Origin: a virus
Reading direction: 5' to 3' (one strand)
Length of the DNA: 47,756 bases
Virus record (IMG/VR): IMGVR_UViG_3300048914_000243
Location: 1 to 47,756 of that record
The notes below the pieces were generated by a model. The model had not been told where the DNA came from, made no database searches, and saw only the letters and a list, made by a program, of their open reading frames with translations. The translations under genes were made by a program, and so were the position numbers. Positions 17,296 to 45,648 of this stretch are shown here, one piece after another (position 1 is the first letter of the stretch; each line of letters starts with the position of its first letter).

Positions 17296-18168
17296 ATGTC
17301 TGGTGGGTGGCACGGCAGCACGCGCCGCTCTCGCCTGCCTGACGACTGGCCCGCTCGCTGCGCGTTCGTGCTCGAGCGTGATGGCTACCAGTGCACGCAC
17401 GTCCGCATCGACACGGGCCGGCGCTGCACGGAGCGGGCGACGGATGTTGACCACGTCGATCGTGGTGACGATCACCGCTACGAGAACCTCGCGGCCAAGT
17501 GTGGCTGGCACCACGACCGCAAGACAGCAGCCGAGGGCAACGACGCGCGGCGCGCACTGTCGAAGACAGCGCGCATGGAGCTCGAGCGGCGCCCCGCGAA
17601 GCGCCATCCGGGCGTGCTGGACCCGGTGTCGGACACCGGGGGCCCTCCACCCCCTCCCCCGGGTCAACCCCAGACCGGGAGCGTTCTGGCGCTCGCTGTC
17701 TGTATGACTCTGGGGGTTGTTTCCGCAGGTCACGTGCCCGCCACTCTTGGCCGGGCGCGCGAGTCGCCGAGGTGTTACGGCAGCACGGCCGGCTCCAACC
17801 CGGCAAGCGGGGGTCCGACTCCTCCCGGCGGCGCCCGTCCCATCCCCTTCCTCCCCCTGTTGAGAGGTGCCGTCATGCGCAAGCTGCGCCGCAGCCTCAC
17901 GCTCCTCGCCTTCGCCGCGCTCATGCTCTTCGCCGGCACGAGCGCCGAGGCGGCGACGGGGTACAACGGCCTGCCGATCTACGCCGTGCCCGCCCACCAC
18001 TACGCCTTCACGTGGGGTGGGTACGACTACAGCTTCCAGGGCACCGACCTGGCGTCGAAGAGCAACCAGACGTGCGTCGGCCACTCCGACCTCGTCAAGA
18101 GGCGGGTCGTCCTGTGCCCCTGGTGCTCGTGGACCTTCGGCTGGATCCCGCACTGCACGCAGGTCTAG
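17296..18168 (+). CDS. HNH endonuclease (open frame continues to 18168)
   Basis: Residues 20-95 form a classic HNH core: ERDGYQC, RRC, a DVDHVD segment with the central His, then AAKCGWHHDRKT. HNH proteins next to terminase genes are standard in cos-type siphoviruses and help the large terminase cut DNA. The domain ends near base 17640, yet the frame has no stop until 18168 and runs through a Pro-rich tract, a tRNA and a separate secreted-protein gene. Either this protein has a long tail, or the readthrough is an artefact of high GC or a sequence error. ATG at 17296 has no clear SD. Confidence 0.8.
   Translation: MSGGWHGSTRRSRLPDDWPARCAFVLERDGYQCTHVRIDTGRRCTERATDVDHVDRGDDHRYENLAAKCGWHHDRKTAAEGNDARRALSKTARMELERRPAKRHPGVLDPVSDTGGPPPPPPGQPQTGSVLALAVCMTLGVVSAGHVPATLGRARESPRCYGSTAGSNPASGGPTPPGGARPIPFLPLLRGAVMRKLRRSLTLLAFAALMLFAGTSAEAATGYNGLPIYAVPAHHYAFTWGGYDYSFQGTDLASKSNQTCVGHSDLVKRRVVLCPWCSWTFGWIPHCTQV
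17622..17720. other. Candidate cos / packaging-initiation region
   Basis: Just after the HNH domain lies a 19-base inverted repeat (CCCGGTGTC, one base, GACACCGGG; 17622-17640), a C-rich tract and then a locally less GC-rich stretch. In many actinophages the cohesive ends lie between the HNH and terminase genes, and cos sites carry such dyads. I cannot identify the overhang, so this is positional inference. Confidence 0.25.
17763..17833 (+). tRNA. tRNA-Trp (CCA anticodon)
   Basis: A 71-nt cloverleaf: a 7-bp acceptor stem with one G-U pair, a 4-bp D stem with G18-G19 and A21 in the loop, a perfect 5-bp anticodon stem with loop CTCCAAC (U33, anticodon CCA, A37), a 4-nt variable loop, a 5-bp T stem with loop TCCGACT, and discriminator G73, the identity base for bacterial tRNA-Trp. 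No CCA end is encoded. Odd points: position 8 is A and 14 is T, an exchange of the conserved U8-A14 tertiary pair, and T55 is C. It lies between the terminase-side HNH gene and a secreted-protein gene. Confidence 0.8.
17875..18168 (+). CDS. Small secreted protein, 97 aa
   Basis: A GAGAGGTG ribosome-binding site five bases before the ATG decides this start, inside the frame that continues from the HNH gene. The product begins with a textbook signal peptide (MRKLRR, hydrophobic core, cleavage near AEA-A at residue 26-27). The mature part of about 70 residues is aromatic, with three Cys (C-x2-C near the end plus two flanking), suggesting a disulphide-bonded extracellular protein. Role unknown: cell-surface modification, exclusion or lysogenic conversion are possibilities. 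Confidence 0.7.
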   Translation: MRKLRRSLTLLAFAALMLFAGTSAEAATGYNGLPIYAVPAHHYAFTWGGYDYSFQGTDLASKSNQTCVGHSDLVKRRVVLCPWCSWTFGWIPHCTQV

Positions 18169-40664: not shown

Positions 40665-41146
40665 CGACGGGGCGCATCTACCAGGCGCGCCTCACGGGCA
40701 CCGTCGAGGTCAGGGGCCGGATCTACCAGGCGCGCCTGACGGGCACCGCTCCGGCTGCGACGAAGGGCCGGATCTACCAGGCGCGTCTGACCGGCACGGG
40801 CGCGGTCCTCCTGGCGCCGTTCGCGGACCGGGCGGTCGAGCCGCTCTCTCCGCAGACGATCACCGCGGTGCTCGCACCCGGCTCGATCGCGCCCGACTCG
40901 TACATCTGGCGCGTCGTCGACGAGCCGGGGTCGACGTCGGTGGTCCTGACGGGAACGGGTGCGACGGTGACGTGTCGTGCCCCGGCCGGTCGGACCGGTG
41001 CCTTCGTGGTGATCGGCGTGCGGGCCGTGAAGGGCGCGCAGAGTTCGCCGGAACGCACGATCCGGATCCTGTCGCTGCCGCAGATCATGTGGCACCTCAA
41101 CGCCGCGGGCCAGTGGGTGCCCGTGTCGCCGACCGTCGCCCTGTAG
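40661..41146 (+). CDS. Tail-tip protein with triple 11-residue repeat, 161 aa
   Basis: Residues 4-14, 19-29 and 36-46 are the same 11-residue unit GRIYQARLTGT. Between copies at DNA level only synonymous positions differ, so the repeat is kept at protein level. Residues 50-140 form an Ig-like beta domain (LAPGSIAPDSYIWRVVDEPGSTSVVLTGTGATVTCRAPAG), and the end (MWHLNAAGQWVPVSPTVAL) is typical of last minor tail proteins in actinophages. ATG overlaps the previous stop. Confidence 0.65.
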   Translation: MTTGRIYQARLTGTVEVRGRIYQARLTGTAPAATKGRIYQARLTGTGAVLLAPFADRAVEPLSPQTITAVLAPGSIAPDSYIWRVVDEPGSTSVVLTGTGATVTCRAPAGRTGAFVVIGVRAVKGAQSSPERTIRILSLPQIMWHLNAAGQWVPVSPTVAL

Positions 41147-41210
41147 CCAACGACGACGAAGCCCCCCGCACCGACCATCAGGTCGGTGCGGGGGGCTTCG
41201 TTGTCGTTGG
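41147..41210. terminator. Bidirectional terminator at end of late operon
   Basis: A 30-bp stem (41147-41176 with 41181-41210) broken by only one G-U pair, closed by an ATCA loop. It exactly fills the gap between the convergent last tail gene and the leftward immunity/integration genes, so it can stop transcription from both sides. Confidence 0.9.
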
Positions 41211-41766: not shown

Positions 41767-42192
41767 TCACCCACCGGCGAGGCGGGCGACGACGGCCCGC
41801 GAGATCCGCCAGTCCCTCCCGACGCGTTCACCGGGGATCGAGCCGTGGGCGAGCCGCTGGCGCACGGCCGACGCGGTGACGCCGAGCAGCTCGGCGGCCT
41901 CGGGGACGCCGATCGTGCCGGACGGCTCGTCGCCGGCCTGGACCCGCGCGTCGAACTCGGCCGTCGGGATCACCTCGAGCCCGAGCAGCGGGGTGCTGTG
42001 CGCGCGTCCGCCGAGGGCGAGCGCGCGCACGATCGCCTGCGTGAGGTCGGGGGCGTCGAGGGTGATGTGGACCTCGACCCATCCGGTGTCGGTCCGGCCG
42101 GTGGCGGGCCCGTGGCCGCCGAGGGCATCGATCAGTTCGTCGTCGATCGGGGTGCGGGTCGCGTACTCGATCCGGGCGTTGTAGTCGGTCAC
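41767..42192 (-). CDS. Excisionase-like HTH protein, 141 aa
   Basis: The C-terminal 55 residues form a MerR/excisionase-type winged helix (GTIGVPEAAELLGVTASAVRQRLAHGSIPGERVGRDWRISRAVVARL). The N-terminal 80 residues are a separate alpha/beta domain without a recognised family. GTG start with GGGAG upstream. Its position beside the attP/integrase region makes a role in excision or regulation likely, but a second Xis-type gene lies at 45439. Confidence 0.68.
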   Translation of the reverse strand: MTDYNARIEYATRTPIDDELIDALGGHGPATGRTDTGWVEVHITLDAPDLTQAIVRALALGGRAHSTPLLGLEVIPTAEFDARVQAGDEPSGTIGVPEAAELLGVTASAVRQRLAHGSIPGERVGRDWRISRAVVARLAGG

Positions 42193-42272
42193 GTCGTGCT
42201 CCCGTGGTGGTGGTGGATCATGGACTTCCCGGGGGCGGGAGACGATTCGCGCGTCTCCCGCCCCCGGCCGGT

Positions 42273-42479
42273 TCACCGCCGGGGCGGCCACCGGAACCCG
42301 CGCCGCTTGAGCGGTGCCAGCGCGTTCATGATCGAACGGTGGTCGCTCGGCGTACCCGAGAACGTCGTCACGTGCTCTCCGTTCTCCGTGTACACCTCGG
42401 GGTGCCCCTTCCGGTTGATGACCACCACGAACCCAGCGGCGGTGATCGCCTTGAGGAGCTTGCGCAGGTCCTTGTCCAT
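42273..42479 (-). CDS. HicA-like small protein, 68 aa
   Basis: The pattern LRKLLKAITAAGFVVVINRKGHPEVYTENGEHVTTFSGTPSDHRSIMNALAPLKRRGF resembles the HicA (dsRBD-like) fold: first helix, strand with GF-x-V, a Lys-Gly-His at the usual catalytic His position, and a last helix. A perfect AGGAGG site lies six bases from the ATG. HicA toxins cleave mRNA and pair with HicB; no HicB is evident here, so it may be an RNA-binding regulator instead. Transcribed from a good leftward promoter overlapping a palindrome. Confidence 0.6.
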   Translation of the reverse strand: MDKDLRKLLKAITAAGFVVVINRKGHPEVYTENGEHVTTFSGTPSDHRSIMNALAPLKRRGFRWPPRR

Positions 42480-42512
42480 GTCTACCTCCTTTCCTGTTGT
42501 TCGGACAAGACG

Positions 42513-42541
42513 AGCATACCGCCTACCTTGCGCTAGCGCAA
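42513..42541 (-). promoter_or_regulatory. Sigma70-type promoter for HicA-like gene
   Basis: On the minus strand TTGCGC (42541-42536) and TATGCT (42518-42513) are separated by exactly 17 bases. The -35 box is inside the palindrome at 42526-42543, so a dimeric protein bound there would block RNA polymerase. Confidence 0.6.
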
Positions 42542-42543
42542 GG
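42526..42543. promoter_or_regulatory. 18-bp perfect palindrome, probable operator
   Basis: CCTTGCGCTAGCGCAAGG is a perfect dyad between two divergent genes and overlaps the -35 of the leftward one. The nine-base half CTTGCGCTA recurs at 45100-45108 upstream of the early HTH gene, suggesting one regulator sees both. Confidence 0.6.
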
Positions 42544-42565
42544 CGAAAGCGAGACCGATTGCTCG

Positions 42566-42571
42566 TACACT
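42566..42571 (+). promoter_or_regulatory. -10 element for leaderless gene
   Basis: TACACT ends six bases before the ATG at 42578, so a transcript from the usual distance would start at the A of the start codon. No SD is present. No convincing -35 is visible. Confidence 0.4.
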
Positions 42572-42577
42572 CGTTCG

Positions 42578-42805
42578 ATGGAGTACGGAAACCGGCTCGT
42601 GAACCACGCCGACCCGAAGGACGTCGAGCCCATCGCCCCGCAGCGGAACGCCCTGGTCGCGTCCGAGCTCTACGACGGCACCACCCCGACCCTGCCCGTC
42701 TGGGCTGTCGCGAAGTCGCGCGACTACATCTGCGTGCGACAGCGCGTCGGGTCGGAGACCGACTGGTTCGCCTGGATCCCACGCGACCGCGTGACCCCCC
42801 GGTGA
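42578..42805 (+). CDS. Hypothetical protein, probably leaderless, 75 aa
   Basis: The only rightward gene within the leftward module. It has no Shine-Dalgarno, but a -10-like TACACT sits at a distance that would make the mRNA leaderless, a common arrangement in Actinobacteria. The product is a small beta domain (ALVASELYDGTTPTLPVWAVAKSRDYICVRQRVGSETDWFAWIP). Likely lysogenically expressed. Function unknown; it is divergent to the HicA-like gene, with which it may form a pair. Confidence 0.6.
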   Translation: MEYGNRLVNHADPKDVEPIAPQRNALVASELYDGTTPTLPVWAVAKSRDYICVRQRVGSETDWFAWIPRDRVTPR

Positions 42806-42806
42806 T

Positions 42807-43023
42807 GGGTGCTCGTTGGGTGCTACGCGCTCCTACACACCGCAACACGCTGCACATTCATCAACACCCGACGGCACCCCGACGGGCGCCGCGCGCACCC
42901 CGCGACGAGCGTTTGCGCAGGTCAGCGGCCCGAAAGCGCGGATGAGTCAGTCGATACGCCGGGTATCGACGAAACGCCGCCTGACCTGCATCTTTGCCAC
43001 CGTGGGTGCTCTCCGGGTGCTCT
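42807..43023. other. attP: Candidate attP with paired arm-type repeats
   Basis: Next to the integrase stop, GGGTGCTC-type heptamers occur as two direct pairs, 42807/42818 and 43004/43015. Members of each pair are 11 bases apart, one helical turn. Between them lie a dyad (42951-42969) and an inverted pair of GCAGGTCAG (42917-42925) and CTGACCTGC (42981-42989). Paired arm-type sites flanking a core are typical of tyrosine-integrase attP regions. The core cannot be named without the host attB, and no tRNA 3' end is recognisable. Confidence 0.5.
42951..42969. repeat. Inverted repeat in attP region
   Basis: TCGATAC and GTATCGA flank a GCCGG spacer, a perfect 7-bp dyad. It may be the integrase core-binding dyad or the integrase transcript's terminator; it lies 54 bases beyond the integrase stop. 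Confidence 0.45.
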
Positions 43024-44174
43024 CAGCCCTCGTCGATGCCCTCGGCCGAAGGCTCCGCGAGCCGGATCAGACCATCCGTTGCGTCGCGCATCCGCTCGTC
43101 GTCGTCCGGCCACAGGTGGGCGTAGGTCTGCAGTGTCTCGGTCGCGTCACGGTGTCCCAGGCGGTGCGCGACCGCGACCGGTGACGAGCCGCCGGCGATG
43201 AGCAGCGACGCGTGGAAGTGCCGCAGCTCGTGCCAGCCCTCCCCCGCCACGACGCCGACCGCGTCGGCCGCGGTCCGCCAGATCTGCCACGCGACCTTGT
43301 GCGTGACGGCACCGCCGCGCGTCGTCGTGAACACCAGGGCCCCGCCGTCCCCCCGCGGGCCGAGCGCCTCGAGCGTCGCCTTCCCCACGGCGACCACGCG
43401 CACGCTCGATGCCGACTTCGGCGGACCCCAGACCGGCCGGCTCGATGTCGCCTTCCGGGTGAGCTGCCGGTCGACCCTGACCAGCGCGCCGCCGGTCGTC
43501 TCCTCGATCCGGTCCCACGTCAGCCCGCGCAGCTCGCCCGAGCGCAGCCCGCTCGCTGCCGCCAGCACGAACATCGGCCGGTACCGCTCGGCCGCCGCGT
43601 CCGTGAGCTGCTGCACCTTCGCGACGCTGTACGGGACCACCGGCATCCGCGCCACCGGCGGCAGGTTCACCCGCCGGCAGGGGCTCGCCACGACCCGCCG
43701 CTCCTCGACCGCCAGCGCACACACCCCCGCGAGGTACACGTAGGCGACGTGCACCGTCGACGGCGCGAGCGAGCTCGACCACGACGTGACCGCCGCCTGG
43801 ATCGTGGACCGGTCCACCTTCGACCACGGCACATCGCCCAGAGACGGCAGGATCGTCCGGTCGAGCCGGCGCCGGATCGTCGCGAGCGACGTGTCCCGCT
43901 GGTGCACCTGCTCGATGTACCACCGCTCCGCGACGTCCCGGACCGTCACGGCGCTCGCGGCGGGCGAGACGTAGTTCCCCGACCGCTGGTCGACGCCGAC
44001 CTTCTCGAGGTGCGCGACCGCAGCGTCCTTGGAGTCGAACGCAAGCTTGCGACGCTGGCCGTTCACCTCGGTCCAGCACGCCGCCCAGCGCTTCCCGACC
44101 CCGTGCCGCGGGCCCTTCACGCGCCCGCGACCGGTCGGTGAGGGAACCGTCCAGCGGTCCTCGATGTGCGCCAC
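43023..44174 (-). CDS. int: Tyrosine integrase, 383 aa
   Basis: All catalytic residues of the tyrosine recombinase family are visible: R211 (SGLRSGELRGL), K253 in the beta hairpin, H315 and R318 (WHELRHFHASLL), H341 (GHRD) and nucleophile Y351 (TYAHL). The N-terminal 65 residues form an arm-binding-like AP2-type domain (KRWAACWTEVNGQRRKLAFDSKDAAVAHLEKV), followed by the SAM-like core-binding domain (about 75-165). It integrates the phage into the host chromosome. GTG start; leftward transcription into the attP region. Confidence 0.95.
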   Translation of the reverse strand: MAHIEDRWTVPSPTGRGRVKGPRHGVGKRWAACWTEVNGQRRKLAFDSKDAAVAHLEKVGVDQRSGNYVSPAASAVTVRDVAERWYIEQVHQRDTSLATIRRRLDRTILPSLGDVPWSKVDRSTIQAAVTSWSSSLAPSTVHVAYVYLAGVCALAVEERRVVASPCRRVNLPPVARMPVVPYSVAKVQQLTDAAAERYRPMFVLAAASGLRSGELRGLTWDRIEETTGGALVRVDRQLTRKATSSRPVWGPPKSASSVRVVAVGKATLEALGPRGDGGALVFTTTRGGAVTHKVAWQIWRTAADAVGVVAGEGWHELRHFHASLLIAGGSSPVAVAHRLGHRDATETLQTYAHLWPDDDERMRDATDGLIRLAEPSAEGIDEG

Positions 44175-45142: not shown

Positions 45143-45442
45143 GTGAGACCAACGAACAGAGCACCGATTGGAGAGGTCTGGATGCTCCTCACGGACCGGA
45201 AGAGGCTGGCGAAGCTCCTGCTCATCCAGGGGGTGACGCACCGCGAGCTGTCGCAGGCCGCCGGGTGGAAGTCGCACTCGTACCTTGGCCGGCTGCTCCG
45301 GGGCGAGGTCAGCACGCTCGAGCCCGAACCGGCGGCGCGCATCGCGGCGTACCTCGGCGTCGGCGTGGACGACCTCTTCATGGTCCGAACGTCCACCGGC
45401 GTAGCGCAGAACGCGTCACGCCGTATGGCGCAGTCGGCATGA
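45143..45442 (+). CDS. XRE/Cro-like HTH protein, first early gene, 99 aa
   Basis: Residues about 22-78 form an XRE helix-turn-helix (LAKLLLIQGVTHRELSQAAGWKSHSYLGRLLRGEVSTLEPEPAARIAAYLGVGVDDLF). A perfect AGGAGG at 45130-45135, seven bases before the GTG, fixes the start; an ATG at 45182 with GAGAGG upstream is a weaker alternative. As first gene of the early operon, divergent from the repressor, it is the Cro counterpart. Confidence 0.78.
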   Translation: MRPTNRAPIGEVWMLLTDRKRLAKLLLIQGVTHRELSQAAGWKSHSYLGRLLRGEVSTLEPEPAARIAAYLGVGVDDLFMVRTSTGVAQNASRRMAQSA

Positions 45443-45648
45443 CCGCCGCAGCGACCGACGCGGGCGACCAGTTCCTGGTCGTGCCAGAGGTTGCGGCGCG
45501 GCTGCGCGAGTCGGAGTGGGCCGTCCGGCAGCTCATCCGCCGCGGAGAGCTGCAGGCCTTCCGCTTCGGCAGGGGGAAGCGGTCCCCGTACCGCGTCGCG
45601 GCCGCCGAGCTCGACGCCTTCATCGCCGCCAGCCGCGTCAACGCCTGA
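45439..45648 (+). CDS. Excisionase-like HTH protein, 69 aa
   Basis: Whole protein is a MerR/Xis-type winged helix (FLVVPEVAARLRESEWAVRQLIRRGELQAFRFGRGKRSPYRVAAAELDAFI). Its size and position, second in the early operon, fit an excisionase made on induction. It is a different type from the two-domain Xis-like gene at 41767-42192. ATG overlaps the upstream stop. Confidence 0.75.
   Translation: MTAAATDAGDQFLVVPEVAARLRESEWAVRQLIRRGELQAFRFGRGKRSPYRVAAAELDAFIAASRVNA

What the first reader, a model, noticed from the sequence alone, without database searches (positions are those of the whole stretch)
42478..42805. Divergent HicA-like and leaderless genes on one palindrome
An 18-bp perfect palindrome overlaps the -35 of a good promoter for the HicA-like gene. 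Facing away is a small gene with a -10 placed so that its mRNA would lack a leader. The half-site recurs upstream of the early operon. This could be an undescribed phage-encoded toxin/regulator pair expressed in lysogens.
Basis: partly seen in the sequence, partly recalled or inferred. Interest (0 to 1): 0.6.

Follow-up and report, generated by a model that had tools for sequence, protein, structure and literature searches.

The report
Phage HicA-like toxin with built-in repressor
A bacterial virus carries a small operon of a HicA-like RNA-cutting toxin candidate and the DNA-binding protein that appears to read the mirror-image DNA site in front of it; the same two-gene unit recurs in many actinobacterial viruses and genomes, and its regulator is a type not described as a partner for HicA toxins in the literature I could search.

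Summary
The perfect 18-bp palindrome (42526-42543) overlaps the -35 of the HicA-like gene's promoter. The partner is not the divergent 75-aa gene but the next gene in the same operon (41767-42192, -): an uncharacterised ferredoxin-like domain plus a winged HTH. In 200 Cellulomonadaceae genomes all 11 strong HicA-like hits have this gene directly downstream; most viral relatives do too. The palindrome lies over the -35 with a 17-bp spacer in most relatives, with different letters, and the letters track the recognition helix: TTGCG operators go with R3 lost and R7 gained (9/10 versus 1/26 of the others). A first subset predicted later-fetched loci, with one miss. Between the genes lies a conserved RNA hairpin with a 7-nt loop (26/29; about 6% of control hairpins). 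A genome holding two copies has lost hicA and hairpin from one but kept the operator before the HTH gene. The unit behaves like a hicAB module whose antitoxin/repressor is not HicB-like. The window has its attP (3' end of rnpB) 0.4 kb away, so the operon becomes a prophage end. Toxicity and neutralisation are inferred, not shown.

The parts
42526..42543 (.). 18-bp perfect palindrome CCTTGCGCTAGCGCAAGG: operator overlapping the -35 (42536-42541, - strand) of the HicA-like promoter
42513..42518 (-). -10 TATGCT of the HicA-like operon promoter, 17-bp spacer to the -35 inside the palindrome
   Evidence: same geometry in relatives
42502..42509 (-). CTTGTCCG, extra half-site-like sequence just after the -10 (CTTGTCAA in most relatives, CTTGTTC in most of the TTGCGC class)
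42273..42479 (-). HicA-like gene, 68 aa, PHROG 2089; invariant H26 and predicted a-b-b-b-a fold
42229..42267 (-). intergenic RNA hairpin: 16-bp perfect stem, 7-nt loop CGCGAAU, no U-tract; conserved in relatives
41767..42192 (-). downstream partner gene, 141 aa, GTG start: N-terminal ferredoxin-like domain + HTH_17 winged HTH with recognition helix VTASAVR; proposed operon repressor/antitoxin
42578..42805 (+). divergent 75-aa ORF with TACACT at 42566-42571; a neighbour, not the conserved partner
42938..42964 (+). attP core identical to the 3' end of host rnpB (RNase P RNA), between the operon and the integrase
43023..44174 (-). tyrosine integrase

Best explanation
The site is the operator-promoter of a two-gene lysogeny operon: HicA-like gene, RNA hairpin, then a gene for a ferredoxin-like/winged-HTH protein. 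Steps and status. (1) The HTH protein binds the palindrome as a dimer and blocks the promoter by covering the -35, so the operon represses itself (indirect evidence: co-variation, later-fetched loci and a natural hicA deletion; about 0.85 likely). (2) The HicA-like protein is an RNase-type toxin of HicA fold with His26 as active residue (inferred from fold and invariant residue; about 0.55). (3) The downstream protein also keeps the toxin in check, directly through its N-terminal domain or only by keeping its synthesis low (inferred; direct binding about 0.4). (4) Because the operon sits at a prophage end beside attP, it serves the lysogen, for example as a defence or stability module (inferred from position).
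For: The downstream HTH gene is next to the HicA-like gene on the same strand in 32 of 37 loci, and in all 11 strong hits in 200 Cellulomonadaceae genomes. The palindrome overlaps the -35 with a 17-bp spacer in most relatives although its inner letters differ. Recognition helix and operator change together: TTGCG operators have lost Arg at position 3 and gained Arg at position 7 in 9 of 10, others 1 of 26; four genome loci fetched later (L075, L076, L078, L080) fitted. A scan of all IMG/VR for the bare 14-mer gave 61 stretches, of which 3 distinct ones sit upstream of this operon; L093 fits, L116 is the same locus as L075, L089 does not fit. In L179 hicA and hairpin are missing and the operator stands directly before the HTH gene. 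His26 is invariant in 30 homologues, the fold is the HicA a-b-b-b-a, and the PADLOC HicA-like model hits at 1.6e-6.
Against: No toxicity or binding was measured. The HicA-like protein is below the Pfam HicA cut-off (13.8 against 27 bits) and Foldseek E-values are weak. The Gly before the His is not invariant. Related HicA-like genes without this HTH gene exist in Dismasvirus phages, and a predicted orphan HicA-like protein of phage LeBron was not toxic (PMC13148394), so toxicity is not assured. Two exceptions to the operator-helix rule (L003, L089). Corrected for kinship there are only 3 independent pairs, all concordant (sign test p 0.25).
Confidence: 0.6

Rival explanations
1. The operon is real and self-repressed, but the HicA-like protein is a non-toxic RNA-binding protein that acts on its own mRNA (for example the 7-nt-loop hairpin) or on phage/host RNA; the module is a regulator, not a toxin-antitoxin system.
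For: Orphan HicA-like genes without the HTH partner; LeBron gp82 not toxic (PMC13148394); an intergenic hairpin with loop length fixed at 7 nt in 26/29 loci against about 6% of control hairpins; HicA has a dsRNA-binding-type fold.
Against: Catalytic His invariant; related phage HicA-like proteins of Adephagia and Amelie are strongly toxic, and His and Gly mutants of the former are not (PMC11373665, PMC11797047).
Confidence: 0.25
2. One reading: HicA-like gene and divergent leaderless 75-aa gene are a toxin/regulator pair on one palindrome.
For: A 75-aa homologue stands divergently at the same palindrome in L075/L116, L076 and, without hicA, L179.
Against: Most HicA-like loci have other divergent genes; the 75-aa family occurs at 34 places in 25/200 genomes mostly without HicA; no DNA-binding domain recognised in it; the recognition helix that tracks the palindrome is in the downstream protein.
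Confidence: 0.06
3. The downstream HTH protein is an excisionase (RDF) and the palindrome belongs to recombination control.
For: TIGR01764 'excisionase family DNA-binding protein' passes its cut-off (36.4 against 28.8 bits); PHROG excisionase families match; attP and integrase are adjacent.
Against: Extra N-terminal domain; the operon is also found without a nearby integrase in most fetched loci and away from rnpB; the site overlaps a -35 at fixed spacing, as an operator would; another HTH_17 candidate lies among the early genes (45265-45648).
Confidence: 0.06

Closest known systems
Class 3 hicAB operons (HicB with C-terminal HTH; Gerdes 2024, PMC10865869)
   Same: Toxin gene first, antitoxin/repressor gene second with a C-terminal HTH, palindromic operator in the promoter.
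   Different: The partner's N-terminal domain is predicted ferredoxin-like (b-a-b-b-a-b), not the HicB partial RNase H fold; the genes are separated by about 80 nt with a conserved hairpin; the HicA-like member is below the Pfam HicA cut-off.
Adephagia gp91/gp90 HicAB-like pair (PMC11373665)
   Same: Actinophage-borne HicA-like toxin with conserved His, antitoxin expressed in lysogens, hairpin between the genes.
   Different: Order is antitoxin first; gp90 is a 65-aa HicB-like protein without a DNA-binding domain; the hairpin there is followed by a T-rich tail like a terminator.
HicA-like genes of Microbacterium (Dismasvirus), Gordonia and Mycobacterium phages
   Same: Found by BLAST with the window protein and mostly annotated as HicA-like toxin.
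   Different: No HTH partner in the Dismasvirus-type loci; other neighbours in the Gordonia and Mycobacterium phages looked at.
Excisionase/MerR-like HTH_17 proteins (TIGR01764)
   Same: DNA-binding domain.
   Different: Extra uncharacterised N-terminal domain, tied to a HicA-like gene and a promoter operator.

Membership tests
HicA toxin (PF07927) | Sequence score above the Pfam gathering cut-off | tested here: not met
   13.8 bits against 27; 22 of 30 homologues hit at E up to 1, best 0.0011; PADLOC HicA-like 1.6e-6
HicA toxin (PF07927) | a-b-b-b-a dsRBD-type fold | tested here: met
   AlphaFold2 model, pLDDT 80, order H-E-E-E-H; 1whz (Thermus protein, by my knowledge the HicA TTHA1913) TM 0.58, probability 0.72, but E 0.76
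HicA toxin (PF07927) | Catalytic histidine after a Gly | tested here: met
   H26 invariant in 30 homologues; the preceding Gly is usual but not invariant
HicA toxin (PF07927) | RNase toxicity | not testable with these tools
   needs expression assays
HicAB class 3 | Partner with HicB partial RNase H fold (b-b-b-a-b) | tested here: not met
   model pLDDT 95 shows b-a-b-b-a-b; PDB hits for that domain are ACT/BMC/PII-type, no HicB among the 50 listed; no HicB family among the 25 Pfam families listed for 30 members
HicAB class 3 | C-terminal HTH in the partner | tested here: met
   HTH_17 in 30 of 30
HicAB class 3 | Toxin gene first, palindromic operator in the promoter | tested here: met
HicAB class 3 | Partner neutralises the toxin | not testable with these tools
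   co-expression needed
Excisionase (TIGR01764) | Excisionase-type HTH domain | tested here: met
   36.4 bits against 28.8; a domain-level model only
Excisionase (TIGR01764) | Required for excision, acting at att sites | not testable with these tools
   needs a deletion lysogen; the operon is mostly not next to an integrase in relatives

The most novel reading that the evidence does not exclude
The conserved 7-nt-loop hairpin between the two genes is the cognate RNA of the HicA-like protein: the toxin binds or cleaves it to set the ratio of toxin to repressor, so the module is controlled at DNA level by a new ferredoxin-like/HTH antitoxin and at RNA level by its own intergenic element.
Probability: 0.2. 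Interest if true: 0.75.

Novelty: new variant of a known kind. Interest (0 to 1): 0.52.

Why it matters
'HicA-like toxin' is a frequent label in actinophage genomes, often with no antitoxin in sight. This shows a conserved partner and a self-contained control region for one branch of the family, across several actinobacterial families and their phages. The letter-by-letter co-change of operator and recognition helix gives a ready test set for how this HTH type reads DNA, and the hairpin with a fixed loop size gives a concrete RNA substrate to test with the HicA-like protein.

Tried and rejected
The 75-aa gene as partner: no hit in phages, only a 19-residue hit in IMG/VR, conserved divergently in a few loci only. 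Half-site at the early operon: chance level. Hairpin as the same element as in Adephagia: rejected, that one has a T-rich tail and a different stem. Hairpin as anti-RBS switch: its 3' arm pairs with the HTH gene's RBS in the window (shuffle p 0.005) and in a related group of loci, but own pairings are not better than pairings with other loci's RBS (p 0.20); left open. Rfam: no family for the hairpin, only chance hits. Sequence search of solved structures: no HicA hit for the HicA-like profile; the HTH domain matches gp37 4j2n_A. rnpB as a shared integration site of the relatives: no RNase P in their fetched loci. Integrase next to the operon in relatives: only two hits in the fetched flanks.

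Full report
What is there. The window is a 47,756-base IMG/VR virus record. On the - strand, right to left, lie: a perfect 18-bp palindrome CCTTGCGCTAGCGCAAGG (42526-42543), a promoter whose -35 TTGCGC lies inside it and whose -10 TATGCT follows after 17 bp, a 68-aa HicA-like gene (42273-42479), a 16-bp perfect hairpin with a 7-nt loop (42229-42267) and a 141-aa gene (41767-42192) with an HTH_17 domain. Facing away is a 75-aa ORF (42578-42805) with a TACACT ending six bases before its ATG but no -35 at 16-18 bp. The palindrome is unique in the window; the half-site claim for the early operon is at chance level.

Which gene is the partner. Relatives of the HicA-like protein were fetched from IMG/VR and GTDB genomes. 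The HTH gene is directly downstream, same strand, in 32 of 37 loci; it is missing only in distant members (two Bacillota MAGs, three loci of Dismasvirus type). In an even sample of 200 Cellulomonadaceae genomes the HicA-like gene occurs in 12 and every one of the 11 strong hits has the HTH gene about 300 bases on; in 396 genomes of the phylum it occurs in 11. It is thus an accessory unit. The 75-aa protein has no relative in phage records. Homologues stand divergently at the palindrome in L075/L116, L076 and L179, but the family is found at 34 places in 25 of 200 genomes, mostly without HicA-like or HTH genes. It is a neighbour with its own life.

Who reads the palindrome. In most relatives an 18-bp palindrome or near-palindrome of the form NCTTGNNNN|NNNNCAAGN overlaps the -35, 17 (rarely 16 or 18) bp from the -10 and about 53 bp before the toxin ATG, but with different inner letters. 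Operators with TTGCG (window, L011, L020, L036 in the first set) pair with recognition helices that lack Arg at position 3 and have Arg at position 7 (VTASAVR, VSAQRAR, VTPQAVR), while TTGT and TTGCT operators pair with SRQAVL-type helices. I saw this in the first set and then checked loci fetched later: L075, L076, L078, L080 with TTGCGCTAGCGCAA have VTQQAIR, VSPQAVR, VTASAVR, VTPSAVR; L073, L074, L077, L079 with other operators have SRQAVL or TRQAVL. A blind scan of IMG/VR for the bare 14-mer gave 61 stretches, three distinct ones upstream of this operon (L116 being the same locus as L075); L093 fits (VTQQRVR), L089 does not (ISRQAIV). Sum: 9/10 against 1/26 (Fisher 1e-6, which ignores kinship). 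On a tree built without the helix columns the operator class changed 4 to 5 times; three independent pairs are all concordant, too few for significance. In one genome (G509) a second copy of the locus has lost hicA and the hairpin; the operator CCTTGCGCTAGCACAAGG now stands directly before the HTH gene (L179). I take the HTH protein as the operon's repressor.

The proteins. AlphaFold2 gives the HicA-like protein the HicA order a-b-b-b-a (pLDDT 80); 1whz, which I know as the Thermus HicA TTHA1913, has the highest Foldseek probability in the list (0.72, TM 0.58) but a weak E-value. His26 is invariant in 30 homologues. It misses the Pfam HicA cut-off but hits PADLOC HicA-like. The partner is modelled at pLDDT 95: b-a-b-b-a-b ferredoxin-like domain, then a winged HTH; PDB neighbours of the first domain are ACT, PII and BMC proteins, not HicB, and no Pfam family covers it convincingly among those listed for 30 members. 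So it works like class 3 hicAB (toxin first, HTH antitoxin second, palindromic operator; PMC10865869) but fails the HicB-fold test and is not filed as a member. None of the 14 HicA contexts listed in PMC10865869 is described with such a partner.

The hairpin. Between the two genes nearly all loci carry a GC-rich stem of mostly 12-20 bp with diverged sequence and no U-tract. The loop is 7 nt in 26 of the loci against 3 with 5 nt and one with no clear hairpin of this kind; loop position 5 is A/U in 25/26, position 6 is A in 20/26, and the 5' arm is purine-rich. Other perfect hairpins of 11 bp or more in the same loci show loops spread from 3 to 12 nt, 7 nt in about 6% (one of the seven listed is the L051 hairpin itself). 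Loci fetched later (L074, L075, L078, L080) again have 7-nt loops, and the L089 and L093 sequences read the same way. An RBS switch is possible in the window and one group but not general.

Where it sits. BLAST of 42806-43022 against 200 Cellulomonadaceae genomes stops at 42964 in hit after hit; 42938-42964 equals the 3' end of rnpB, confirmed by Rfam RF00010. This is the attP core beside the integrase. In a lysogen the operon lies about 0.4 kb from the prophage end, just downstream of rnpB. Several viral relatives also carry it within about 1.4 kb of a contig end (L002, L009, L011, L034, L036), though not at rnpB. This is where prophage-expressed genes often lie (cf. the discussion in PMC11373665).

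Function. Related phage HicA-like proteins are strongly toxic in Adephagia and Amelie, with loss of toxicity on His or Gly mutation in the former (PMC11373665, PMC11797047), but the LeBron protein was not toxic (PMC13148394). Toxicity and neutralisation here remain inferred. Novelty: a new variant of the HicA toxin-antitoxin kind, with the toxin step unproven.

Noticed in passing
window 42938-42964: attP core identical to the 3' end of RNase P RNA (rnpB) of Cellulomonadaceae; an inverted repeat GTCGATAC-GCCGG-GTATCGAC overlaps its end. 42819-42937 also resembles the flank of rnpB in G560 (79%).
   Followed up: partly
G579:C1 174791-176939, G580:C5 151525-171214, G538:C1 454177-455311: Two copies of the rnpB 3' end lie 1 to 20 kb apart, suggesting that rnpB is an integration hot spot in this family; a 75-aa-family gene lies between the copies in G579.
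   Followed up: no
window 41145-41210: 31-bp inverted repeat with 4-nt loop after the tail genes, probably a bidirectional terminator.
   Followed up: no
window 17763-17835: Phage tRNA-Trp (CCA) gene within the late region.
   Followed up: no
L179 against L151 (same genome G509): Paralogous loci with and without hicA plus hairpin, HTH region 90% identical: a natural toxin deletion that keeps the operator.
   Followed up: yes
window 42502-42509: A half-site-like CTTGTCCG just after the -10, CTTGTCAA in most relatives and CTTGTTC in most of the TTGCGC class; it sits near the expected transcript start and is unexplained.
   Followed up: partly
L008, L023, L027, L040, L041, L044, L050: The 5' arm of the hairpin (GAGGACCGG) is repeated at or near the RBS of the HTH gene, which would allow an alternative RBS-blocking pairing.
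   Followed up: partly
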